DNA of 54,686 nt, taken from Terriglobia bacterium. Its GTDB lineage: Bacteria; Acidobacteriota; Terriglobia; Terriglobales; SCQP01. The stretch is from the NCBI GenBank assembly GCA_021323595.1, contig JAJPKR010000019.1, positions 1 to 54,686 of the forward strand, written 5' to 3'. Every line of letters starts with the position of its first letter. Position 1 is the stretch's first letter. A program made the position numbers and the translations under genes. Below are positions 7,804 through 50,575 of the stretch, piece by piece. Under the pieces are notes generated by a model that saw nothing but the letters and a program-made list of their open reading frames with translations, was not told the DNA's origin and searched no databases.

Positions 7804-8809
7804 CCTCATATGGTAGCGCCCGCGGCTGCGGCGCGACCCGGCCTTTCCACTGCGCCGGCCGGCGCGCGCGCCACCAGATGGCCGCGACCAAGGCATTGGC
7901 CGGCAGCAGCCACGCCGCGCCATCGCGTCCGGCACGCCGCTGGCGGCGCGCGTAACGCACGTGCTCGAACGCCACATAGGCCGCCGCCAGGGCCGCCAGC
8001 CGCGGCCGCCGCATCACCCAGGCCCCCAGGGCGAGGCCGGCGCCGGCCAGCGGCGCGACGAGCGGCGCCAGCCCGGCTGCGGTCGGCGGCCCGAACAAGC
8101 CGACGAAATTCTTGCTCCAGCCCGCCGCCAGTTCGTCCCACCCGCGATACATGCGTGTCGCGACGCAATCGCGCCCGTCGCCGAAACGGTAGCGCAGGCC
8201 GGCGGCCTTGATCCGCCGCGCCAAGGCCACGTCTTCCAGCCATTCCCCCGCGATCGCGGCGTGGCCGCCCAGCGCGAAATAATCGGCGCGGCGGATCAAG
8301 ATGAACTGGCCGTTGGCGGCGGCGCAGGGATCGGCGGGATCGTTGACGCGCGCCGGCGGGAACCGGCGATCGAGCAGATCGAAGACGCGCGCCTGCACCG
8401 CCCGCTCCACCCAGCCTTCGGCCCTTTGCCGCGGCGAGAGCGAAAGTGAGGCCAGGCCGTCGCGCTCGATTTCGCGCCAGGCGCGCTCCAAACCGCCGGG
8501 CAGCAAACACGCGTCGGCATCGAGAAACAGCAGCCACGGCTGCGTCGCGTGCTGCGCCGCTTGCCACAACGCGTAGTTCTTGCCCGCCCAGCCCGGCGGC
8601 GGCCCGGCGATCGCCAGGGCGCGAACCCGCGCGTCGGCGGCCTGCCAGCGCGCGGCGATCGCGCCGGTCTGGTCGGTGGAACCGTCGTCGGCGACCCAAA
8701 TTTCCGCCGCGCCGCTGGCCGTGGCCGCTGCCAGGCAGGCATTGAGATTGGCCTGTTCGTTGCGCGCGGGAATCAGGATCGCCAGCGGGAACTGCGGCGG
8801 CGCGGCCAT
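7796..8809 (-). CDS. Family 2 glycosyltransferase (membrane-anchored)
   Basis: 337 residues. The GT-A domain occupies roughly residues 1-240, with [11 protein letters not shown] at the N-terminus, the nucleotide-binding [10 protein letters not shown], the metal site LFLDADACL, and the acceptor-side motif [25 protein letters not shown] segment resembles glycosyltransferases acting on lipid acceptors such as carotenoids or hopanoids, but the acceptor cannot be decided here. Two hydrophobic helices near residues 245-275 and one near 310 suggest membrane association. Its ATG overlaps the stop of the thioredoxin-like gene by one base (TGATG) and its 3' end overlaps folE, so it is in a tight operon. 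Confidence 0.85.
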
Positions 8810-9348
8810 CAGCGCAGTGCCGTCAGCGGCCCGTTGATGCGGCCGGCGGCCAAGTCTTTGAGATAGGCGACCATGCCCGGCGCGCTCCAATCCATGGCGC
8901 CCACGATCTTGCGCGCCAGCCTGCCCTGCTGATCGATGATGTAGGTCTCGGGGATCTGCACCGTGCCGTAGCGGTGCATGAGCGCGGCGCTGGGATCGCG
9001 GGCCGTGGCGAAGCGGATGTGATATTGCTGCAGGAAGCGGCGATAGGCCGCCGGGTCGGTGTCGATCGAGACGGCCAGGATCCGCACCGGCCGGCCGGCG
9101 AGCTGCTGCGCCAGCGCATTCAGCGCCGGCGCTTCTTCGACGCAGGGCGGGCACCAGGAAGCCCAGAAGTCCAGCACCAGCACTTGCCCGCGGAAGCTGG
9201 CGAGCGTCACCGGCCGCCCGTCGGCCGTGACCAGGGAAAAGTCAGGAACCGGACGGCCGGGCCGGACGCGGCCCGAGCAGCCTGCCAGCGCGCACGCCAG
9301 CAGCGCCGTCAGAACTGCTCCGCTCACGCTCGCTCGCCTGCCGCCCAT
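8809..9348 (-). CDS. TlpA/ResA-type thiol-disulfide oxidoreductase, lipoprotein
   Basis: 179 residues. The N-terminal signal ends in a lipobox (LAGC, Cys at about residue 23), so it is predicted to be anchored outside the inner membrane. The remainder is a thioredoxin fold of the TlpA/ResA/AhpC-TSA type: PDFSLVTADGRPVTL, the active site FWASWCPPCVEE, and the cis-proline loop at QIPETYIID. The WCPPC motif indicates a reductant, for example in cytochrome c maturation or envelope disulfide control. It is the first gene of the overlapping run to tgt; no promoter is obvious upstream. Confidence 0.9.
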   Translation of the reverse strand: MGGRRASVSGAVLTALLACALAGCSGRVRPGRPVPDFSLVTADGRPVTLASFRGQVLVLDFWASWCPPCVEEAPALNALAQQLAGRPVRILAVSIDTDPAAYRRFLQQYHIRFATARDPSAALMHRYGTVQIPETYIIDQQGRLARKIVGAMDWSAPGMVAYLKDLAAGRINGPLTALR

Positions 9349-9418
9349 AACTGAATTTCAGTTTAGGACGTTTCGCGCCTGCGGACTTTGCGGCCGTCCC
9401 GCGCCGCCTTGCAGCGCG

Positions 9419-9503
9419 TCCGGCGCGCGGCCGTCGCGGGTGCGCCAGGCCGCTGCGCCCACCCGCGCCGCCCAGCAACTCCGGCGCACGGCCGTCACGG
9501 GTG
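9419..9503. repeat. Pair of near-identical 24-bp direct repeats
   Basis: Copies at 9419-9442 and 9480-9503 share the pattern TCCGGCGC-R-CGGCCGTC-R-CGGGTG and differ at only two positions. They lie 61 bp apart in the 146-bp non-coding stretch downstream of the decayed small gene; the second copy covers that gene's stop codon. No other feature is seen in this gap. Confidence 0.6.
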
Positions 9504-9742
9504 GCACCCACCGACGCGTACGCACGGAGGCGGCTGCTTCGCCCTGGCCCAAACGATCAGCCCGGTCGCGCCTGCGGCGACTCCGGACAGAATGATCGTC
9601 TTCATCAGCGAAACGCGCCGTGGCAAGCGGCAGCAGCCGGCCGCCGGCTCCGCCGCTTGCCCGGCGCCCGCGCGCCGGGCGGGTAGCGGCGCGCAAGGCG
9701 CGGCTGCCGCCACGCCCGGCGCCAGCACCGGCCCGAGGCACC
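9441..9742. repeat. Direct repeat of about 300 bp, copy A
   Basis: This segment and 10999-11300 are clearly alignable over their full length and in the same orientation, with scattered substitutions and small indels. The similarity includes the 3' flank of the small gene (the GCGCCAGGC-type stretch), so it is a DNA duplication and not only gene homology. The reductase gene and the IS110 remnant lie between the copies. Confidence 0.65.
9495..9742 (-). pseudogene. Truncated copy of the small secreted/membrane protein at 11051-11419
   Basis: The frame ending at the TGA at 9497-9495 aligns along its whole C-terminal part with the intact gene about 1.5 kb away: both contain the CLGP-LAPG start of homology, an arginine/alanine-rich middle, a membrane helix (here KTIILSGVAAGATGLIVWAR) and the ending GGCHP. 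The N-terminal signal peptide present in the other copy is missing; the homology stops a few dozen bases from the end of the reductase gene, and the frame runs on into that gene without a start of its own. A GTG at 9728 could serve as a start for a 77-residue protein, so expression as a truncated protein is not excluded. Confidence 0.55.
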
Positions 9743-9768
9743 GGCGGGCGCAACGGCGCTGCTCTGAG

Positions 9769-10326
9769 TCAGCGCGCGCGCCGATAGTGCACGGCGACCG
9801 CGCCGCTGCGGAGCGGCGCCGCCGAGACCAGCTCGAGCCGTCGCGTCCTGGGCAAACTGCCCTGATATAGGGTCGGGCCGTGGCCGGCGATCCTGGGGTT
9901 GACGAGGAACTTGTACTCGTCGATCAGATCCAGCCGCTCCAGTTCGATCGCGAGCTTGTTGCCACCGAGGAGCACGCCGGCCGGGGTCGCGTCCTTGAGC
10001 TTCTGCATCCCCGTGCGCAGGTCGCCGGTGATGCGGTGGCTGTTGTTCCATGAGAAATCCTTTCGCGTCGACGACACCACGTATTTCGGCTTGGCCTCCA
10101 GCTTGATCGCCCACTCGCGCATCGCCGGCGGCGCCGCCACGTCGCCGCGGGCGACTGCGGGCCAGTGGCTCTCCATTAGTTCGTAGGTGACGCGGCCCCA
10201 TAGCATCGCCCCGCTCTCGTCCATGAGGCGCGTGAAGAAGGCGTGGGTCTGGTCGTCGGCGACTGCTTCCCGGTGGTCGATGCAGCCGTCCAGGGTGACG
10301 TTGATACAGAAGGTTAACAGCCCCAT
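9769..10326 (-). CDS. RibD C-terminal/dihydrofolate reductase-like domain protein
   Basis: 185 residues of the stand-alone DHFR-like reductase family that resembles the C-terminal domain of RibD. It starts with MGLLTFCINVTLDGCIDH, typical of the family, followed by the MLWGRVTYELM helix, KYVVSST strand, the nucleotide-binding GVLLGGNKLA and the substrate-side FLVNPRIAGHGPTL. The family reduces pyrimidine or similar heterocycles with NAD(P)H; the true substrate is unknown. It lies alone within an accessory patch bounded by the two copies of a duplicated segment, which hints at acquisition together with the surrounding DNA. Length is normal. Confidence 0.88.
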   Translation of the reverse strand: MGLLTFCINVTLDGCIDHREAVADDQTHAFFTRLMDESGAMLWGRVTYELMESHWPAVARGDVAAPPAMREWAIKLEAKPKYVVSSTRKDFSWNNSHRITGDLRTGMQKLKDATPAGVLLGGNKLAIELERLDLIDEYKFLVNPRIAGHGPTLYQGSLPRTRRLELVSAAPLRSGAVAVHYRRAR

Positions 10327-10451
10327 CCGGCGAGTCTAAGCCACGCATCCCTGGTCATGGGACGACAGGCCGCCGCGGAGCTTGCCGCTGCGGAAGTGCG
10401 CCAGGGGCGAAGCTGACACGCGCGTGCGGAGAGATGCCGCGGCGGGCAGCG

Positions 10452-10637
10452 GCGCGCCCAGTAGTGCGTGCCTCCGCAGGCCTCCAGCCCAACCCTGCAC
10501 GATGGAGGGTTGCCGAAAATCGGAGTCGCGTCACGGCGGGGCGGCTTTCGGTCGAGCACGATCATTCCGTGGGCCTCGGTCCCGTGCAGCGGAAAGACGT
10601 CCTTGACGATGTCCAACGCAACGACTGCCATCTGCAT
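10452..10637 (-). pseudogene. IS110-family transposase, N-terminal remnant
   Basis: The 62 residues from the ATG at 10637 match the beginning of IS110 transposases: AVVALDIVKDVFPLHG carries the first catalytic Asp (residue 9), and GLEACGGTHYWAR carries the conserved Glu (residue 52) of the DEDD RuvC-like site. After WAR the family similarity stops abruptly, and the remaining DEDD residues, the middle and the C-terminal serine domain are absent. It is therefore a fragment that cannot transpose. It marks a past insertion in the 9.4-13.4 kb accessory patch. Confidence 0.8.
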
Positions 10638-10998
10638 GAATGGTGGGCGGGGCGATAAGCTTCGCAGAGCTTCGTTCTCCCACCCCAAGGCGCGCCGCTG
10701 CGCCTTGGGGTCCCCGGCTCGGCTGCTCGGGGCGGATCGGATACATCCGTGTATTCCTCCTGCCCCTCCCAGCCTGCGACCTCGCCCCACTTGCTGCTCG
10801 CCCCGCTCCGGCGTAATTAGCTGGCAGAGACCCGCCCTGTGGAATTTCGCGGGCCTCCCCCTCGATCTCGGCGTGCTGGGTTTTCAGTGGCGGACTCGGG
10901 GGCTGTCGCTAATGGCTCTCCTCTGATGTCAGCCGATGTGCAGCTCCGCTGCTGCCCACATTCCTTCATCGAGATGGGTCCATTCCATTAGGTCGCTT
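10638..10998. other. Non-coding stretch upstream of the IS110 remnant, with a perfect 11-bp hairpin
   Basis: No supported gene lies here. At 10683-10710 there is a perfect inverted repeat: arms CCCCAAGGCGC and GCGCCTTGGGG around a 6-base loop. It lies 46-73 bp upstream of the remnant's ATG, on the side where IS110 elements carry their left end and its structured bridge RNA, so it could be a relic of that RNA. This reading is inference; the hairpin is not followed by a T run that would make it an obvious terminator. The rest of the stretch shows nothing recognisable. Confidence 0.35.
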
Positions 10999-11300
10999 GC
11001 GCCAGGCTGCCGCGCCCACGCGCGCCGCCTTTAAATATTTGTCGCGGGCGTCAGGGATGGCATCCGCCGCGGCTTACACACGGAGGCGGTTGCTTCGCCC
11101 TTGCCCAGACGATCAGCCCGGTCACACCGGCCGCGATCCCGGCCAAGATGATCGTTTTCACCAGAGAAACCCGCCGCGGCAAGCGGCAACAGCCGGGCGC
11201 CGGCTCCGCCGCTCGCCGCGCGCCCGCGCGCCGGGCGGGCAGCGGCGCGCAGGGCGCGTCCGCCGCTGCGCCTGGCGCCAACAGCGGCCCGAGGCACGCC
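10999..11300. repeat. Direct repeat of about 300 bp, copy B
   Basis: Partner of the segment at 9441-9742, same orientation. This copy holds the C-terminal two thirds of the intact small gene at 11051-11419 plus about 50 bp of its downstream flank. Similarity fades at the point where the small gene's N-terminal part begins. Confidence 0.65.
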
Positions 11301-11419
11301 CGCGACTCAAGCGCCGATATAATGGGCCCCGGCCTTACCAGCACCGGCCGGGATACGGGCTGCTGCGCCCACGCGCACGCCGCCCCACAAACGAAAACGA
11401 CCGCCAGCGCGGCCCTCAC
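11051..11419 (-). CDS. Small secreted or membrane protein of unknown function
   Basis: I do not recognise the family. The 122-residue product begins with a signal peptide (MRAALAVVFVCGAACAWAQ), continues with a segment rich in alanine, arginine, proline and cysteine (including PGCC), and has one membrane helix near residues 87-105 (KTIILAGIAAGVTGLIVW) followed by a short Cys-containing tail ending GGCHP. The GTG start overlaps the stop of the kelch gene by four bases (GTGA), so the two are probably co-translated. The C-terminal portion is duplicated at 9495-9742, and amino acids are conserved between the copies where DNA differs, which supports a real coding sequence. Confidence 0.55.
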   Translation of the reverse strand: MRAALAVVFVCGAACAWAQQPVSRPVLVRPGPIISALESRACLGPLLAPGAAADAPCAPLPARRAGARRAAEPAPGCCRLPRRVSLVKTIILAGIAAGVTGLIVWARAKQPPPCVSRGGCHP

Positions 11420-13227
11420 CGCGCACCGCCTCTCGGCAGGGCTTGCGGGCTTTGCGGCAGCCGGTTGACGATGAGCGTCGCGTGGGCGCTCTCCTTGGTG
11501 CCGTTCATCGTGTCGGTGACCGTGAGCGTGTAGCTGCCGTAATGGTCAGACTCCGCGTCCAGCGTCGCCGAGCCCGTGCCGCTGATCGTCGTGGGGCTTA
11601 TCGAGCAATTGACCGTTCCGCAACTAGAGCTGAGGTCTACGGTTCCTCCCGACGAGACGTTAACGGTGAAATAGGCATCGTTGTACTGGTAAACCTGCTG
11701 GGAGCCAGGAGTGACCGAGATTGAGAACGGCGCCGCAACGGTTACGGCCACAGGGGTCGACGGGATGCCGTTGGCCACGACCACCAACTGGCTCGGACCC
11801 GCCTCGATGCCCGCAGGAACATCGAACTGAGCGGTTACGGGCGCCGCCCCCGTAGCCACGCCCATCGTGCTAAAGCTGTGAGTTCGGCAGTAAAAGACGT
11901 GGCCGCTGGCGTCGTTGGTGATGCGCACGAGGAGGAAATTCGTGGCCATCTGCCAGTCGTCTCCGTACATGGACGACTGCGAAAGCCCGTTAAATTGAGT
12001 TCCGGAGATTTGATTGTCAACGCTTCCCGGCTCGAGGGTCGTCGACACCGAGGTGATGGTCGGCTGCCAGGACGCCTGGTAGTTCCCAGCGTGCGTGTAA
12101 ATCTCGATATCCGTGCCCTCATCCGTGAAGAGCACCTGGCCGGTCGGGAGCAACAGCATCTCGCCTTGATAAGAGGCGTCGTTATCCCCGTTCGGCGGCG
12201 GGGGCTCCTCGATGAACTGTGAGCTACCGTCATACTCAAGAAATATGCTCGGCGGATTATAACACGCCCCATTTGGCCCACCCAATGCCCACGAGGCCTG
12301 CAAGAAAACATTACCATCTGGTAATGAGACGCCCGGACCGTCAGCATCGATCTCTGGGTTGATCGTCAGTCCTGCGGCCCAGGCGCCTGAGGCCGGATCG
12401 TAGATGGCCGTGCTGGTCGTGCCGCCGATCGCCAGCACCTTGCCGTCGGGCCGCAAGACCATTGGGCCCATCCCGGCCGCATAGCCCGCTGGCATGCCGC
12501 AAGGGTTGCCGAGCTGAACCGGGATAGCTCCCGACGCCGACCACGTTTCACTGTTGGGATCGAATAGGTCTGAAAGCGTTCCGGGCACCGCGGAAAGCTC
12601 CACCGTAAGGACCTTCCCGCCCGGAAGGAGGACCCAGCCCTCTTCGCTGCCAAAGTCTCCGTCAGGTTTCTCAGCCGTGCTCACCGTCCAGGTCAGAGTC
12701 TGCGCATCGAGGAAAGCCTGGTCCCGGTTTCCAGGAGACCCGGAGCCGCTCATCATAAAGGTGCCGTTCGGGAGGACTACGCTGACTGCGTCTCCGATGT
12801 TCGTCCATAGCGCGGGCTGTGTTGGTGGATTCACTGAAGTCCACGTATTCGCCACTGGGTCATAGATCGCGCCCAGATTTGTCTCCACCACTGTGGTGGA
12901 ACCGTTGTACTCACCACCCTCGATGATGAGGCGCCCGTCGGGCAATACCGCACTAGCATAGGCGTCGGGCGCATAGCCGCTCGGCAAGCTTGCCACCTGG
13001 GTCCAGCTGCCGTCGGCATAGTTGCCATTGGCATCAGGGGCAAGTCGGAACCAGTTGCCCGTTAAATACTCCTGGACCAAAACGGTCCCATCGGTGAGCA
13101 GCACATGGTGCGAGGCCTGGATGTTAAATGGATTGCTTACAGCGGTCCAGGTTTGCGCTGCCGCTGGAACAACCACCGCGAGAATCAGCAGGGCAAAAAG
13201 GGATGCGCCTGCCTGCCTGCCTGGCAT
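11416..13227 (-). CDS. Secreted kelch-repeat/galactose oxidase-like protein
   Basis: 603 residues. A signal peptide (LFALLILAVVVPAAAQ) is followed by a beta-propeller of repeated D-G-x-hydrophobic kelch-like blades (for example LPDGRLIIEGGEYN, RPDGKVLAIGGTTS, LPTGQVLFTDEGTD). Near residues 410-500 lies the galactose-oxidase-like C-terminal domain (GTQFNGLSQSSMYGDDWQMA, then HSFSTMGVATG), and an Ig-like C-terminal domain closes the protein. I did not find the full copper and Tyr-Cys active site of true galactose oxidase, so oxidase activity is not claimed. Codon usage and base composition are visibly less GC-rich than in the neighbours, suggesting transfer. It leads a two-gene unit with the small protein downstream. 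Confidence 0.8.
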   Translation of the reverse strand: MPGRQAGASLFALLILAVVVPAAAQTWTAVSNPFNIQASHHVLLTDGTVLVQEYLTGNWFRLAPDANGNYADGSWTQVASLPSGYAPDAYASAVLPDGRLIIEGGEYNGSTTVVETNLGAIYDPVANTWTSVNPPTQPALWTNIGDAVSVVLPNGTFMMSGSGSPGNRDQAFLDAQTLTWTVSTAEKPDGDFGSEEGWVLLPGGKVLTVELSAVPGTLSDLFDPNSETWSASGAIPVQLGNPCGMPAGYAAGMGPMVLRPDGKVLAIGGTTSTAIYDPASGAWAAGLTINPEIDADGPGVSLPDGNVFLQASWALGGPNGACYNPPSIFLEYDGSSQFIEEPPPPNGDNDASYQGEMLLLPTGQVLFTDEGTDIEIYTHAGNYQASWQPTITSVSTTLEPGSVDNQISGTQFNGLSQSSMYGDDWQMATNFLLVRITNDASGHVFYCRTHSFSTMGVATGAAPVTAQFDVPAGIEAGPSQLVVVANGIPSTPVAVTVAAPFSISVTPGSQQVYQYNDAYFTVNVSSGGTVDLSSSCGTVNCSISPTTISGTGSATLDAESDHYGSYTLTVTDTMNGTKESAHATLIVNRLPQSPQALPRGGAR

Positions 13228-13429
13228 CCTGGGGAACCTTTTCTCGCAACTGACACGACCTACCTCCTTCCGAAGCGGATGCGCGGATCATACCACAACT
13301 AACCCGTCCCCAAATACTGATCGTTGCCCCACATAGCGGGCGGCCGCACGGCCGCGGCCATCACCTTCGCTGGCTCCCAGATCCTAGCCGCGAAGCGCGG
13401 CGCTCACAAGCGCCTACCCGGCCCCGGGG

Positions 13430-15832
13430 CTAGGTGATGGCCATGGCGAAGTCGCGGCCTTCCCAGCGATGGTCGGCGGTCCAATAGAAGGTGAAGCGCA
13501 GGGTGCCCTTGCCGCCCGGCGGGACGTTGATGTGCGCCGCATACAGGCCGAGCGCGGTGGCGACGGCGGTGGTGTCATGGACCGTGCGCCACTCGTCGGC
13601 GCTCCAGTGCACCAAAAAGGGCGCGCGGGCGGGAATGCAGACTGTGCCCCCTGCGGGAACGCGGGGATTGGGATAGTTGAAGGTCCAAAACTCGACCGGC
13701 TGCTTCGGCGCCAGACCGGCGCCGTAGCGCGCCGCGGCGCTGGGCAAGCGGTCGAACACCTGGCTGTCGCGGCGCGAGCGCAGCAGCTTGATGTACTCCG
13801 AATGCGCCCACAGCAGCGGCATCGCCGAGCCGGTGGGGCGGCCGAAGAACATGAATTTTTCCGGCAAGTCGGGCCGGTCCCAGACCTGCTCGGGCAAGAG
13901 CTCGGCCCCGCTCGCGAAGCGCTCCATGGCGCGAATGTAGGGTTCGGGCGAGCGCCCGCGCGCCAGCTCGTAATGGCCGCGCTCGCCGGTGAGCAAGGGC
14001 CAACTGCGGCCTTGCCCCCAGCCCTGATAGGCGCTGCCATCATTGCGCTGCCCGTAACCGTCGTGGTTGTAGCGCCGCCACACCGGTCCATACGGCATGT
14101 CGAAGCGCAGCACCGCGTCAATGACACGCACCGAGTCCACGATGATGGGATCGTCGGCGCGGCGAATGCCATACCGGACCAACTCCAAAAATCCCGCATC
14201 CACGACCTCGCGCGCCGGAAAGAAGCGCTGTTCGTTGGGGCCGCGGTTCATCAGCTCGACCTGCGCCTCTTCATACGGCCCCTCGGGCTCGGCGGCGCCG
14301 GGCTTGACGGGCAAGATGCGGATGAAGTGCCGGGCAATCCCGGGGACCAGCGTCCCGTGGTGGGTCACCGTCCAGCCCTCGAGATGGGCATTGATGAAGT
14401 CGGCGTAGTTCTGGATCAGCGCGGCGGTGGCGGCGTCGCCGCGCGCGCGCGCCATGTCGGCGGCCGAGGCGAGCGCGGCAATCAGGGCCGCGAGCGTCGA
14501 AGGCGAATAGCCCGAACATTCTTCCCAGCGCTCCTGCGGCGTGACCGGCCCGAAGGCCATGAGAAAGCCGGCGGCGCGCAGCACCATGGGATAGGGATCG
14601 AAGTCGCCCAGCGCCTGCAGCCGCTCCAGCCGCGACGCCAGGATGATGGGGAAGGCGGCTTCATCGAGCTGCTCGCCGCGCCAGTAAGGGCGGCCGTCAA
14701 TCCAAAAATTCTGGAAGAAGCCGCCATCCTCGCGCTGCGACGTCGCCAGGTAAATCAGCGCCCGGCGCGGCGTCTCGGTGAAGCCGGCGGCGAGCAGCCC
14801 CGTCGCGCTCTTGACCATGTCGCGGGTCCAGACGAGGTGATAGCCGCCGAGGTCGTCGTCGCTTTTGGTTTCGCCCCAGGGAATGCTCATCGAGGCGATG
14901 ATGGCGCCGGGGTAGCTTTTGTCTTCGTGCGCTTGGATCAATTGCACGCTGCGGCGGAAGAGCGCGCCGCCGTCGCCGCTTTCCTCGCTCAAATCGAGGC
15001 GATGCGCGGCCGCCCGCTCCCATTGCGCCGCGAAGCGGCTGCGCTGCTCGGCGAACGGCAGGTCGAGCGCCTGCAGCAGCGTATTGACCGCGCTGTGCAT
15101 CGAATCGCCGAAGGCCAAGCCCAGCGTGAAGTCGCGGCGCTGGCTCAGGTCCATCTCGGCGATGGCGGCGACATTGCCGTCGAGGGCGCAGTCGAACTGC
15201 CAATCCATGCGGAAGTCCTCGGCGAGGTCGGTCCAGCCGTCGCTTGTGCCCACATAGCCGCACGAGCAGCGCAGAAAGGGCACGGTCGCGCCCAGCGCCA
15301 GCCAGGTGTCGTTTTTGTACGCGATCAGCATCTTGCGGCCGGCCAGCTCCGCCACCCGCAAATTGTTATGCCAGCCGCCGACATCAAGATGCGGGGCCAG
15401 CAGCGCGAACAGGCGCAGGCGATCGGCGGGCACGCCCAGCGCCTCGAATTCGGTCGCGATCAGCAAGCAGGATTGGTGCGGGTCGGCGATGATCTGTTTG
15501 GTGATCTGGTACGCGCCCCCCAAATCGCGGTTGGCCACGCGATACCCCAGCGCCTCGGGAGCGATCGGGCTGATCTCCGAAGCCGTGTTTCGCCGTTCGT
15601 CATGGAACAGCGAATGGCCGTCGCTGACGAGATATTGCAAGTCGCGTATCTGCGGATGATCGATGGTGGGGAAATAAACTTCAGTGATGACGCCGCGCGC
15701 GATCGTGAACCAGAGGCGGCTGGCCGCGGAGTAAGCAGTGCCGACAGCGTCCTTCGCGCCGCGGGTCCAGCGCGGCTCGATGCCCGGCGCGCCAAAGGCC
15801 GGGCGGCGGCAGACAGGAAGATTGTTGGTCAC
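13430..15832 (-). CDS. Glycoside hydrolase family 15 protein (glucoamylase/glucodextranase type)
   Basis: About 800 residues, the length of bacterial GH15 enzymes with an N-terminal beta super-sandwich domain. The N-terminus reads RRPAFGAPGIEPRW, then AKDAVGTAYSAASRLWFTIA, typical of glucan 1,4-alpha-glucosidase. The catalytic (alpha/alpha)6 barrel includes YHLVWTRDMVKSATGLLAAG, the presumed general acid in WEECSGYSPST, and the presumed base Glu in LLPEQVWDRPDLPEKF. It would release glucose from alpha-glucans. The frame stays open far upstream, but that part is antisense to the neighbouring synthase. GTG at 15832 is my best start; GTG at 15859 is possible. No signal peptide is seen. Confidence 0.9.
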   Translation of the reverse strand: MTNNLPVCRRPAFGAPGIEPRWTRGAKDAVGTAYSAASRLWFTIARGVITEVYFPTIDHPQIRDLQYLVSDGHSLFHDERRNTASEISPIAPEALGYRVANRDLGGAYQITKQIIADPHQSCLLIATEFEALGVPADRLRLFALLAPHLDVGGWHNNLRVAELAGRKMLIAYKNDTWLALGATVPFLRCSCGYVGTSDGWTDLAEDFRMDWQFDCALDGNVAAIAEMDLSQRRDFTLGLAFGDSMHSAVNTLLQALDLPFAEQRSRFAAQWERAAAHRLDLSEESGDGGALFRRSVQLIQAHEDKSYPGAIIASMSIPWGETKSDDDLGGYHLVWTRDMVKSATGLLAAGFTETPRRALIYLATSQREDGGFFQNFWIDGRPYWRGEQLDEAAFPIILASRLERLQALGDFDPYPMVLRAAGFLMAFGPVTPQERWEECSGYSPSTLAALIAALASAADMARARGDAATAALIQNYADFINAHLEGWTVTHHGTLVPGIARHFIRILPVKPGAAEPEGPYEEAQVELMNRGPNEQRFFPAREVVDAGFLELVRYGIRRADDPIIVDSVRVIDAVLRFDMPYGPVWRRYNHDGYGQRNDGSAYQGWGQGRSWPLLTGERGHYELARGRSPEPYIRAMERFASGAELLPEQVWDRPDLPEKFMFFGRPTGSAMPLLWAHSEYIKLLRSRRDSQVFDRLPSAAARYGAGLAPKQPVEFWTFNYPNPRVPAGGTVCIPARAPFLVHWSADEWRTVHDTTAVATALGLYAAHINVPPGGKGTLRFTFYWTADHRWEGRDFAMAIT

Positions 15833-32612: not shown

Positions 32613-32708
32613 GGAAGCGCATGCGGCCCGGTGGCTGTCCTGGTCTTCAAAACCAGTGGTCCCGTCCAAAGGCGGGACGGTCGGTTCGACCCCGACACGC
32701 TTCCGCCA
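32613..32708 (+). tRNA. selC: tRNA-Sec (anticodon TCA)
   Basis: The 96-nt sequence folds as a bacterial selenocysteine tRNA. The acceptor is GGAAGCG with CGCTTCC, followed by G73 and an encoded CCA. The D stem has 6 bp (GCGGCC/GGCTGT) with a 4-base loop, the anticodon stem CTGGT/ACCAG encloses CTTCAAA with TCA at 32647-32649, a long variable arm has a GTCCCG/CGGGAC stem, and the T arm is GTCGG TTCGACC CCGAC. The eighth acceptor pair expected for this tRNA would be C-A, so one mismatch is present. It implies that the organism decodes some UGA codons as selenocysteine. selA and selB are not in the window. Confidence 0.95.
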
Positions 32709-50410: not shown

Positions 50411-50575
50411 AACCTCAATAAAGCGCCCATCCAGGGATCCCGGCCAACTCCGCAGGCCCAAACCGAATCCTACTTACGAGGCCCCCCAGGGGTAGCCTCC
50501 GCGGATCGCGCCTCGGCGCCTCCGCCGCTGTTTGACAACTGAATAATGTGGCCGCGCCTTGCTCGGGCGTTAGAC

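What the first reader, a model, noticed from the sequence alone, without database searches (positions are those of the whole stretch)
9441..11300. Duplicated small secreted/membrane gene flanking a reductase and an IS110 remnant
Two direct copies of about 300 bp, one in an intact gene coupled to the kelch gene, the other fused just after the reductase gene and lacking its signal peptide. Amino-acid conservation in the membrane helix exceeds that of the DNA, indicating selection on a protein of unknown function. The arrangement suggests recombination or transposition built this patch.
Basis: partly seen in the sequence, partly recalled or inferred. Interest (0 to 1): 0.58.

Follow-up and report, generated by a model that had tools for sequence, protein, structure and literature searches.

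The report
Kelch partner gene, duplicated and decaying
The repeated stretch is a real, protein-coding small membrane-protein gene that travels as the second gene behind a secreted propeller-protein gene in a few related bacteria, and the second copy here is one of several worn-down leftovers of that gene pair.

Summary
The duplication is real: 9489-9741 vs 11045-11297, 84%. It codes: A/B dN/dS 0.16, only in the stated sense frame. A third copy lies elsewhere in the genome. Copy A (11051-11419) is a 122-residue protein with a signal-like N-terminal helix, a Pro/Ala/Cys-rich linker and one C-terminal membrane helix. Its start overlaps the kelch stop by 4 nt.

Kelch linkage recurs. Of 14 genomes of the family, three have this kelch gene, and each is followed, with the same 4-nt overlap, by a small gene of the same architecture. 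0 of 25 scorable kelch loci outside the family have one. Small genes also survive behind kelch stumps: copy C here, others in G009 and G010. G010 holds a tandem array: kelch-small, stump-small, stump-small. Copy B is best read as such a leftover, with a RibD-type reductase gene where its kelch and signal peptide would be.

Proposed role (inferred): membrane partner of a galactose-oxidase-fold secreted propeller. A-type and G009/G010-type small proteins are barely alike in sequence. The spacer holds a mosaic hairpin repeat found at about 30 loci.

The parts
11051..11419 (-). small gene copy A, 122 codons: signal-like N-terminal helix, Pro/Ala/Cys-rich linker, C-terminal membrane helix (residues ~82-108), Cys-containing tail
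11416..13227 (-). kelch gene K0, 603 aa, secreted galactose-oxidase-fold propeller plus ~100-residue C-terminal extension
   Evidence: Pfam Kelch_6 above cut-off; fold match to galactose oxidases Z 30.8
11416..11419 (-). 4-nt stop/start overlap GTGA; SD-like GAGAGGCGG just upstream lies inside the last kelch codons
9495..9749 (-). small gene copy B: 5'-truncated orphan copy without signal peptide and without kelch
9441..9472 (-). block after the stop of copy B, 91% like the block after copy A; also resembles signal-peptide codons of copy A (possible tandem remnant)
10998..11029 (-). matching block after the stop of copy A
9769..10326 (-). RibD_C-type reductase gene sitting where copy B's kelch partner and signal peptide would be
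   Evidence: PF01872 49.5 bits, cut-off 24.1
10533..10637 (-). N-terminal fragment (~34 aa) of an IS110-family transposase
   Evidence: 44-56% identity in the listed plasmid matches, three of eight annotated IS110; no Pfam hit
10640..10916 (+). copy of a dispersed modular hairpin repeat (about 30 loci in this genome)
9349..13429 (.). whole patch between the thioredoxin-like gene (8809-9348 -) and the GH15-type gene (stop at 13430 -); absent from G005 and G006

Best explanation
The repeated gene is the downstream half of a two-gene unit: a secreted kelch (galactose-oxidase-fold) propeller and a small exported, single-pass membrane protein whose translation is probably coupled to it by a 4-nt overlap, with a Shine-Dalgarno-like sequence in the last kelch codons. 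Shown: gene order, overlap, architecture, coding selection between A and B, and recurrence in a second genus, including stumps. Inferred: the small protein is the membrane partner (anchor or assembly factor) of the propeller, its Pro/Ala-rich stretch lying outside the inner membrane and its helix holding the complex there. The unit duplicates, at least once in tandem; the long kelch gene is then lost by deletion while its 3' tail and the small gene linger and often decay. Copy B is such a leftover, further cut by arrival of a reductase gene, an IS110 fragment and a dispersed repeat.
For: Three of three kelch genes of this type in the family (K0; G009:C14; G010:C257) are followed at -4 nt by a 118-136 aa ORF with N-terminal and C-terminal hydrophobic helices; 0 of 25 scorable kelch loci outside the family. 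Kelch tails plus overlapping small genes without the kelch body: G010 s2 and s3, own C28 copy C (kelch fragment 15/23 identical to G009 kelch, E 2.6e-5, and a GGDR-stop tail as in G010), G009:C16 s4 (read by eye). dN/dS 0.16 for A/B. Two-helix prediction for A. Independent profile hits: C16 s4 4.6e-11 and s5 1.7e-8; a profile of A, B and C ranks G010 s1 first among ORFs outside its own members, E 9e-4.
Against: A has no detectable pairwise similarity to the G009 small protein (E 4.4), and a G009/G010-only profile did not list A, B or C among the 25 best rows shown, so common descent of the two types rests on position, overlap, architecture and one weak profile hit. Several orphans are damaged (B, s3, s5, and C with ATA at the start position), so much of the rest may be junk. 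No physical interaction was tested. The G009 kelch ORF is split by a frameshift and the G010 kelch is cut by the contig end. G009:C12 has a similar small gene with no kelch beside it.
Confidence: 0.55

Rival explanations
1. The two genes are only neighbours: the small protein is an independent, fast-evolving envelope protein of one lineage, and its place behind kelch is accidental or ancestral.
For: Solitary relative at G009:C12 (profile E 5e-4); intact orphan ORFs s2 and s4; A-type and G009/G010-type sequences hardly alike.
Against: Exact -4 nt overlap at three of three kelch genes and at stumps (G010 s2, s3; C as ATAA; s4 by eye); absent at 25 of 25 scorable outside loci.
Confidence: 0.25
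2. Cassette system working like CDI or Rhs orphan modules: the kelch 3' tail plus the small gene is an exchangeable module, and displaced copies are kept as immunity-like or silent cassettes.
For: G010 tandem array of stump-small modules behind a kelch-small pair; tail type goes with small type (s1/s3 vs s2). The published description of orphan cdiA-CT/cdiI modules as displaced 3' ends in tandem arrays with transposase genes nearby (PMC4927057, passages read) matches this anatomy.
Against: No toxin domain recognised in the kelch 3' part (0 Pfam families for the 295-residue G010 C-terminal part); no PADLOC match; tails are short and low-complexity and carry the SD-like sequence of the next gene, which by itself explains part of their conservation; many copies are broken.
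Confidence: 0.12
3. The repeat is non-coding and the ORFs are chance in GC-rich DNA.
For: GC-rich region with long spurious ORFs on both strands; one antisense frame that shares third positions also gives 0.22.
Against: dN/dS 0.16 in the sense frame against 1.62 and 1.85 in the other sense frames; hydrophobic helices, overlap and recurrence in another genus in the same frame.
Confidence: 0.04

Closest known systems
Galactose-oxidase / AA5 fold (for example Streptomyces GlxA, 5lxz; Pseudoarthrobacter enzyme 9g8h)
   Same: Kelch model aligns to 9g8h over residues 24-492, Z 30.8, rmsd 3.7, 356 residues
   Different: 17% identity; copper ligands not tested; extra ~100-residue C-terminal part of low model confidence; a separate small membrane gene behind it
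CDI / Rhs orphan toxin-immunity modules (PMC4927057, passages read)
   Same: Large secreted protein, small gene behind it, displaced 3' ends with small genes in tandem, mobile-element debris nearby
   Different: No toxin domain or secretion machinery recognised; tail is tens of residues; the small protein has its own signal-like peptide
RibD C-terminal domain reductases (PF01872)
   Same: Gene at 9769-10326 passes the cut-off
   Different: It is a neighbour of copy B, not part of the pair

Membership tests
Galactose oxidase-like fold (kelch gene) | kelch propeller followed by an all-beta domain, superposable on galactose oxidase | tested here: met
   Foldseek E 4.1e-16, VIA Z 30.8; Kelch_6 30.4 bits, cut-off 25.3
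AA5 copper radical oxidases | copper ligands and Tyr-Cys cofactor (recalled definition) | not tested
   no residue-level structural alignment was available; the profile alignments are local and out of register
CDI/Rhs polymorphic toxin systems | toxin domain in the C-terminal part of the large protein | tested here: inconclusive
   0 Pfam families for the G010 C-terminal 295 residues; no PADLOC hit for K0, A, G009 or G010 small protein
CDI/Rhs polymorphic toxin systems | displaced 3' end plus small gene as orphan modules downstream | tested here: met
   G010:C257 array
CDI/Rhs polymorphic toxin systems | small protein neutralises the large one | not testable with these tools
   needs expression tests
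T2SS-T3SS_pil_N (PF13629) | score above Pfam cut-off | tested here: not met
   13.7 and 16.7 bits, cut-off 23
IS110 transposase (fragment) | similarity to IS110 N-terminus | tested here: met
   24 plasmid records, best E 1e-3; three of the eight listed annotated IS110 family transposase; no Pfam hit

The most novel reading that the evidence does not exclude
A lineage-specific cassette system in which the 3' tail of a secreted propeller gene and its coupled small membrane gene form an exchangeable module, displaced copies being kept downstream, as with CDI and Rhs orphan modules but without a recognised toxin.
Probability: 0.12. Interest if true: 0.7.

Novelty: new variant of a known kind. Interest (0 to 1): 0.4.

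Why it matters
It gives an orphan membrane-protein family a partner that can be tested and shows how a translationally coupled pair breaks down: the small gene outlasts its large neighbour. If the displaced modules are functional, they would be a new kind of cassette behind a propeller protein.

Tried and rejected
Profile searches with the three own-genome copies only: in 14 family genomes nothing beyond the own genome below E 0.1; of 399 class genomes 31 besides the own one had matches at E <= 0.01, best 2.5e-4, judged compositional noise because they cover parts of Ala/Arg-rich frames, many with stops. The wider 8-row profile gave the same kind of noise outside the family, best 1.8e-5 with an internal stop. 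The genome-contig scan returned one Paracoccus locus covering 30 residues, dropped as chance. No match in plasmids or phages at 1e-5. NCBIfam, PHROGs and PADLOC: nothing for the small protein. Rfam: nothing on the dispersed repeat; its predicted RNA fold is only mildly better than shuffles (z -1.75, 10 of 200 shuffles as good), so an RNA role is not claimed. Two searches of held papers for such a pair showed nothing relevant in the listings; this is no proof that none exists. The antisense ORF reading was considered and rejected in favour of the sense frame. The first scan of kelch neighbours was loose; one search repeats it with stated limits and drops 3 of 28 loci for lack of downstream sequence; the kelch matches that had no locus were not examined. 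In some searches my GH15 reading frame was wrong near the end; the GH15 stop in G005 was read by eye from the printed sequence (about 106 bp before the first aligned thioredoxin codon). The P of about 0.06 for copy B was worked out by hand.

Full report
Observation. The direct repeat is 253 nt at 84% (9489-9741 / 11045-11297) with a further 32-nt block at 91% just past the stop codons. Against 538 other stretches of the window the best score to copy A is 55; copy B scores 306. Copy A is a 122-codon ORF starting with GTG at 11419; the last 4 nt of the kelch gene and the first 4 of A are shared (GTGA). Copy B's homology starts 20 nt after the stop of a RibD_C-type gene (49.5 bits, cut-off 24.1).

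Coding test. Over 82 codons A and B differ by 26 synonymous and 13 nonsynonymous changes, dN/dS 0.16; the other sense frames give 1.85 and 1.62. The C-terminal part is stricter (0.09) than the N-terminal part (0.36). One antisense frame with shared third positions gives 0.22, as expected from the sense signal. A third copy, C, was found at G000:C28:48200-48499 (E 1.9e-11). With C as outgroup on 41 codons, the A branch has 5 synonymous and 0 nonsynonymous changes, the B branch 4 and 5, with 5 synonymous unassigned. B has probably lost constraint, though the numbers are small.

What the protein looks like. All eight aligned members have a hydrophobic N-terminal segment, a linker of 45-75 residues that is 27-52% Pro+Ala, one C-terminal hydrophobic segment, and a short tail, mostly with Cys. 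These are hydropathy calls, not a signal-peptide predictor. AlphaFold gives two helices (2-18 and 82-108) and a middle of low confidence, mean pLDDT 64.

Linkage to kelch. A search with the kelch protein found it in 3 of 14 family genomes (G000, G009, G010). In G009:C14 the gene behind it is a 118-codon ORF with the same architecture and an ATGA overlap; the G009 kelch ORF is broken by a frameshift before its tail. In G010:C257 the kelch gene, cut by the contig end, is followed by s1 (GTGA), then a kelch tail of about 57 residues with s2 (ATGA), then a shorter tail with s3 (GTGA), whose C-terminal helix is lost. A profile search then found two more in G009:C16, s4 (4.6e-11) and s5 (1.7e-8): there the first ~65 residues of a kelch protein run directly into a kelch-type tail and s4; s5 has a disturbed start and no stop before the next gene (the junctions read by eye). 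Copy C has directly upstream a kelch fragment (15 of 23 residues identical to G009 kelch, E 2.6e-5) and a tail ending GGDR like that of G010, with the same GGAGGTGACAG; its overlap reads ATAA, so its start would be ATA or a later TTG or ATG. G009:C12 has a solitary, weaker relative (E 0.10, 5e-4). Outside the family, of 28 kelch loci 25 could be scored and 0 had such a gene between -70 and +300 nt of the stop. The kelch tails carry the Shine-Dalgarno-like sequence of the next gene, which explains at least part of why tails are retained.

Limits of the homology. A and the G009 small protein show no pairwise similarity (E 4.4). The A/B/C profile ranks G010 s1 first after its own members against 2,029 background ORFs, at E 9e-4; the G009/G010 profile shows none of A, B, C in its 25 best rows. 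The link between the two types is therefore mainly positional and architectural. The kelch extensions are also hardly alike (E 0.07), while the propellers are 55% identical. Both genera lie in one family; the organism's name was not given by any search.

History of the patch. G005 and G006 have the GH15-type and thioredoxin-like genes next to each other; here 4,081 bp separate them. The simplest reading is arrival of a kelch-small pair, tandem duplication, loss of the second kelch, and debris: a reductase gene, about 34 residues of an IS110 transposase and a dispersed repeat. The order of events is inferred. The 27-nt match between the block after each copy and the signal-peptide codons of A (score 38; 1 of 4,560 background scores reached it) fits further tandem remnants but is weak.

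The dispersed repeat. 10640-10916 recurs in 55 matches that I group by eye into about 30 loci in this genome (59 matches with the longer query), with sharp ends (ATGGTGGGCGGGGCGATAAGC ... GGGGGCTGCCGCC) and interchangeable hairpin modules. Parts of it, above all one hairpin module, also recur in G004, G005 and G006 (44, 9 and 18 matches), and hardly in other family members (0 or 1 match each).

Kelch fold. The model (21 sequences, pTM 0.78) matches galactose oxidases over residues 24-492, Z 30.8. Whether it is a copper enzyme was not tested.

Judgement. A real, coding, lineage-restricted small membrane protein, most likely the translationally coupled partner of a secreted propeller (0.55). The displaced stump-small modules resemble orphan modules of CDI systems (passages of PMC4927057 read), but no toxin was recognised, so this stays a minority reading (0.12).

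Noticed in passing
window 10640-10916; about 30 loci in the genome (for example L008-L014, L016, L026): Dispersed mosaic repeat with fixed ends and interchangeable, duplicated hairpin modules; one module is abundant in G004, G005 and G006 as well. No Rfam match; nature unknown.
   Followed up: partly
L003 about 1399-1453 and 2313-2370 (G000:C28): A second, ~50-bp direct repeat (92%) flanks copy C and overlaps the end of its ORF; one diverged 33-bp match near window 50440-50472.
   Followed up: no
L187 7200-7580 (G009:C16): Small-gene copy s5 runs without a stop in frame into a downstream NAD-dependent epimerase-like gene.
   Followed up: no
L096 about 8774-8860 (G009:C14): A frameshift splits the kelch gene of G009 before its tail; sequencing error or real was not tested.
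   Followed up: no
window 32613-32704: Selenocysteine tRNA gene.
   Followed up: no
G004 contigs C290, C96, C303: Hairpin-module copies occur in pairs about 114 bp apart (C290, C96; 141 in C303), some near contig ends.
   Followed up: no
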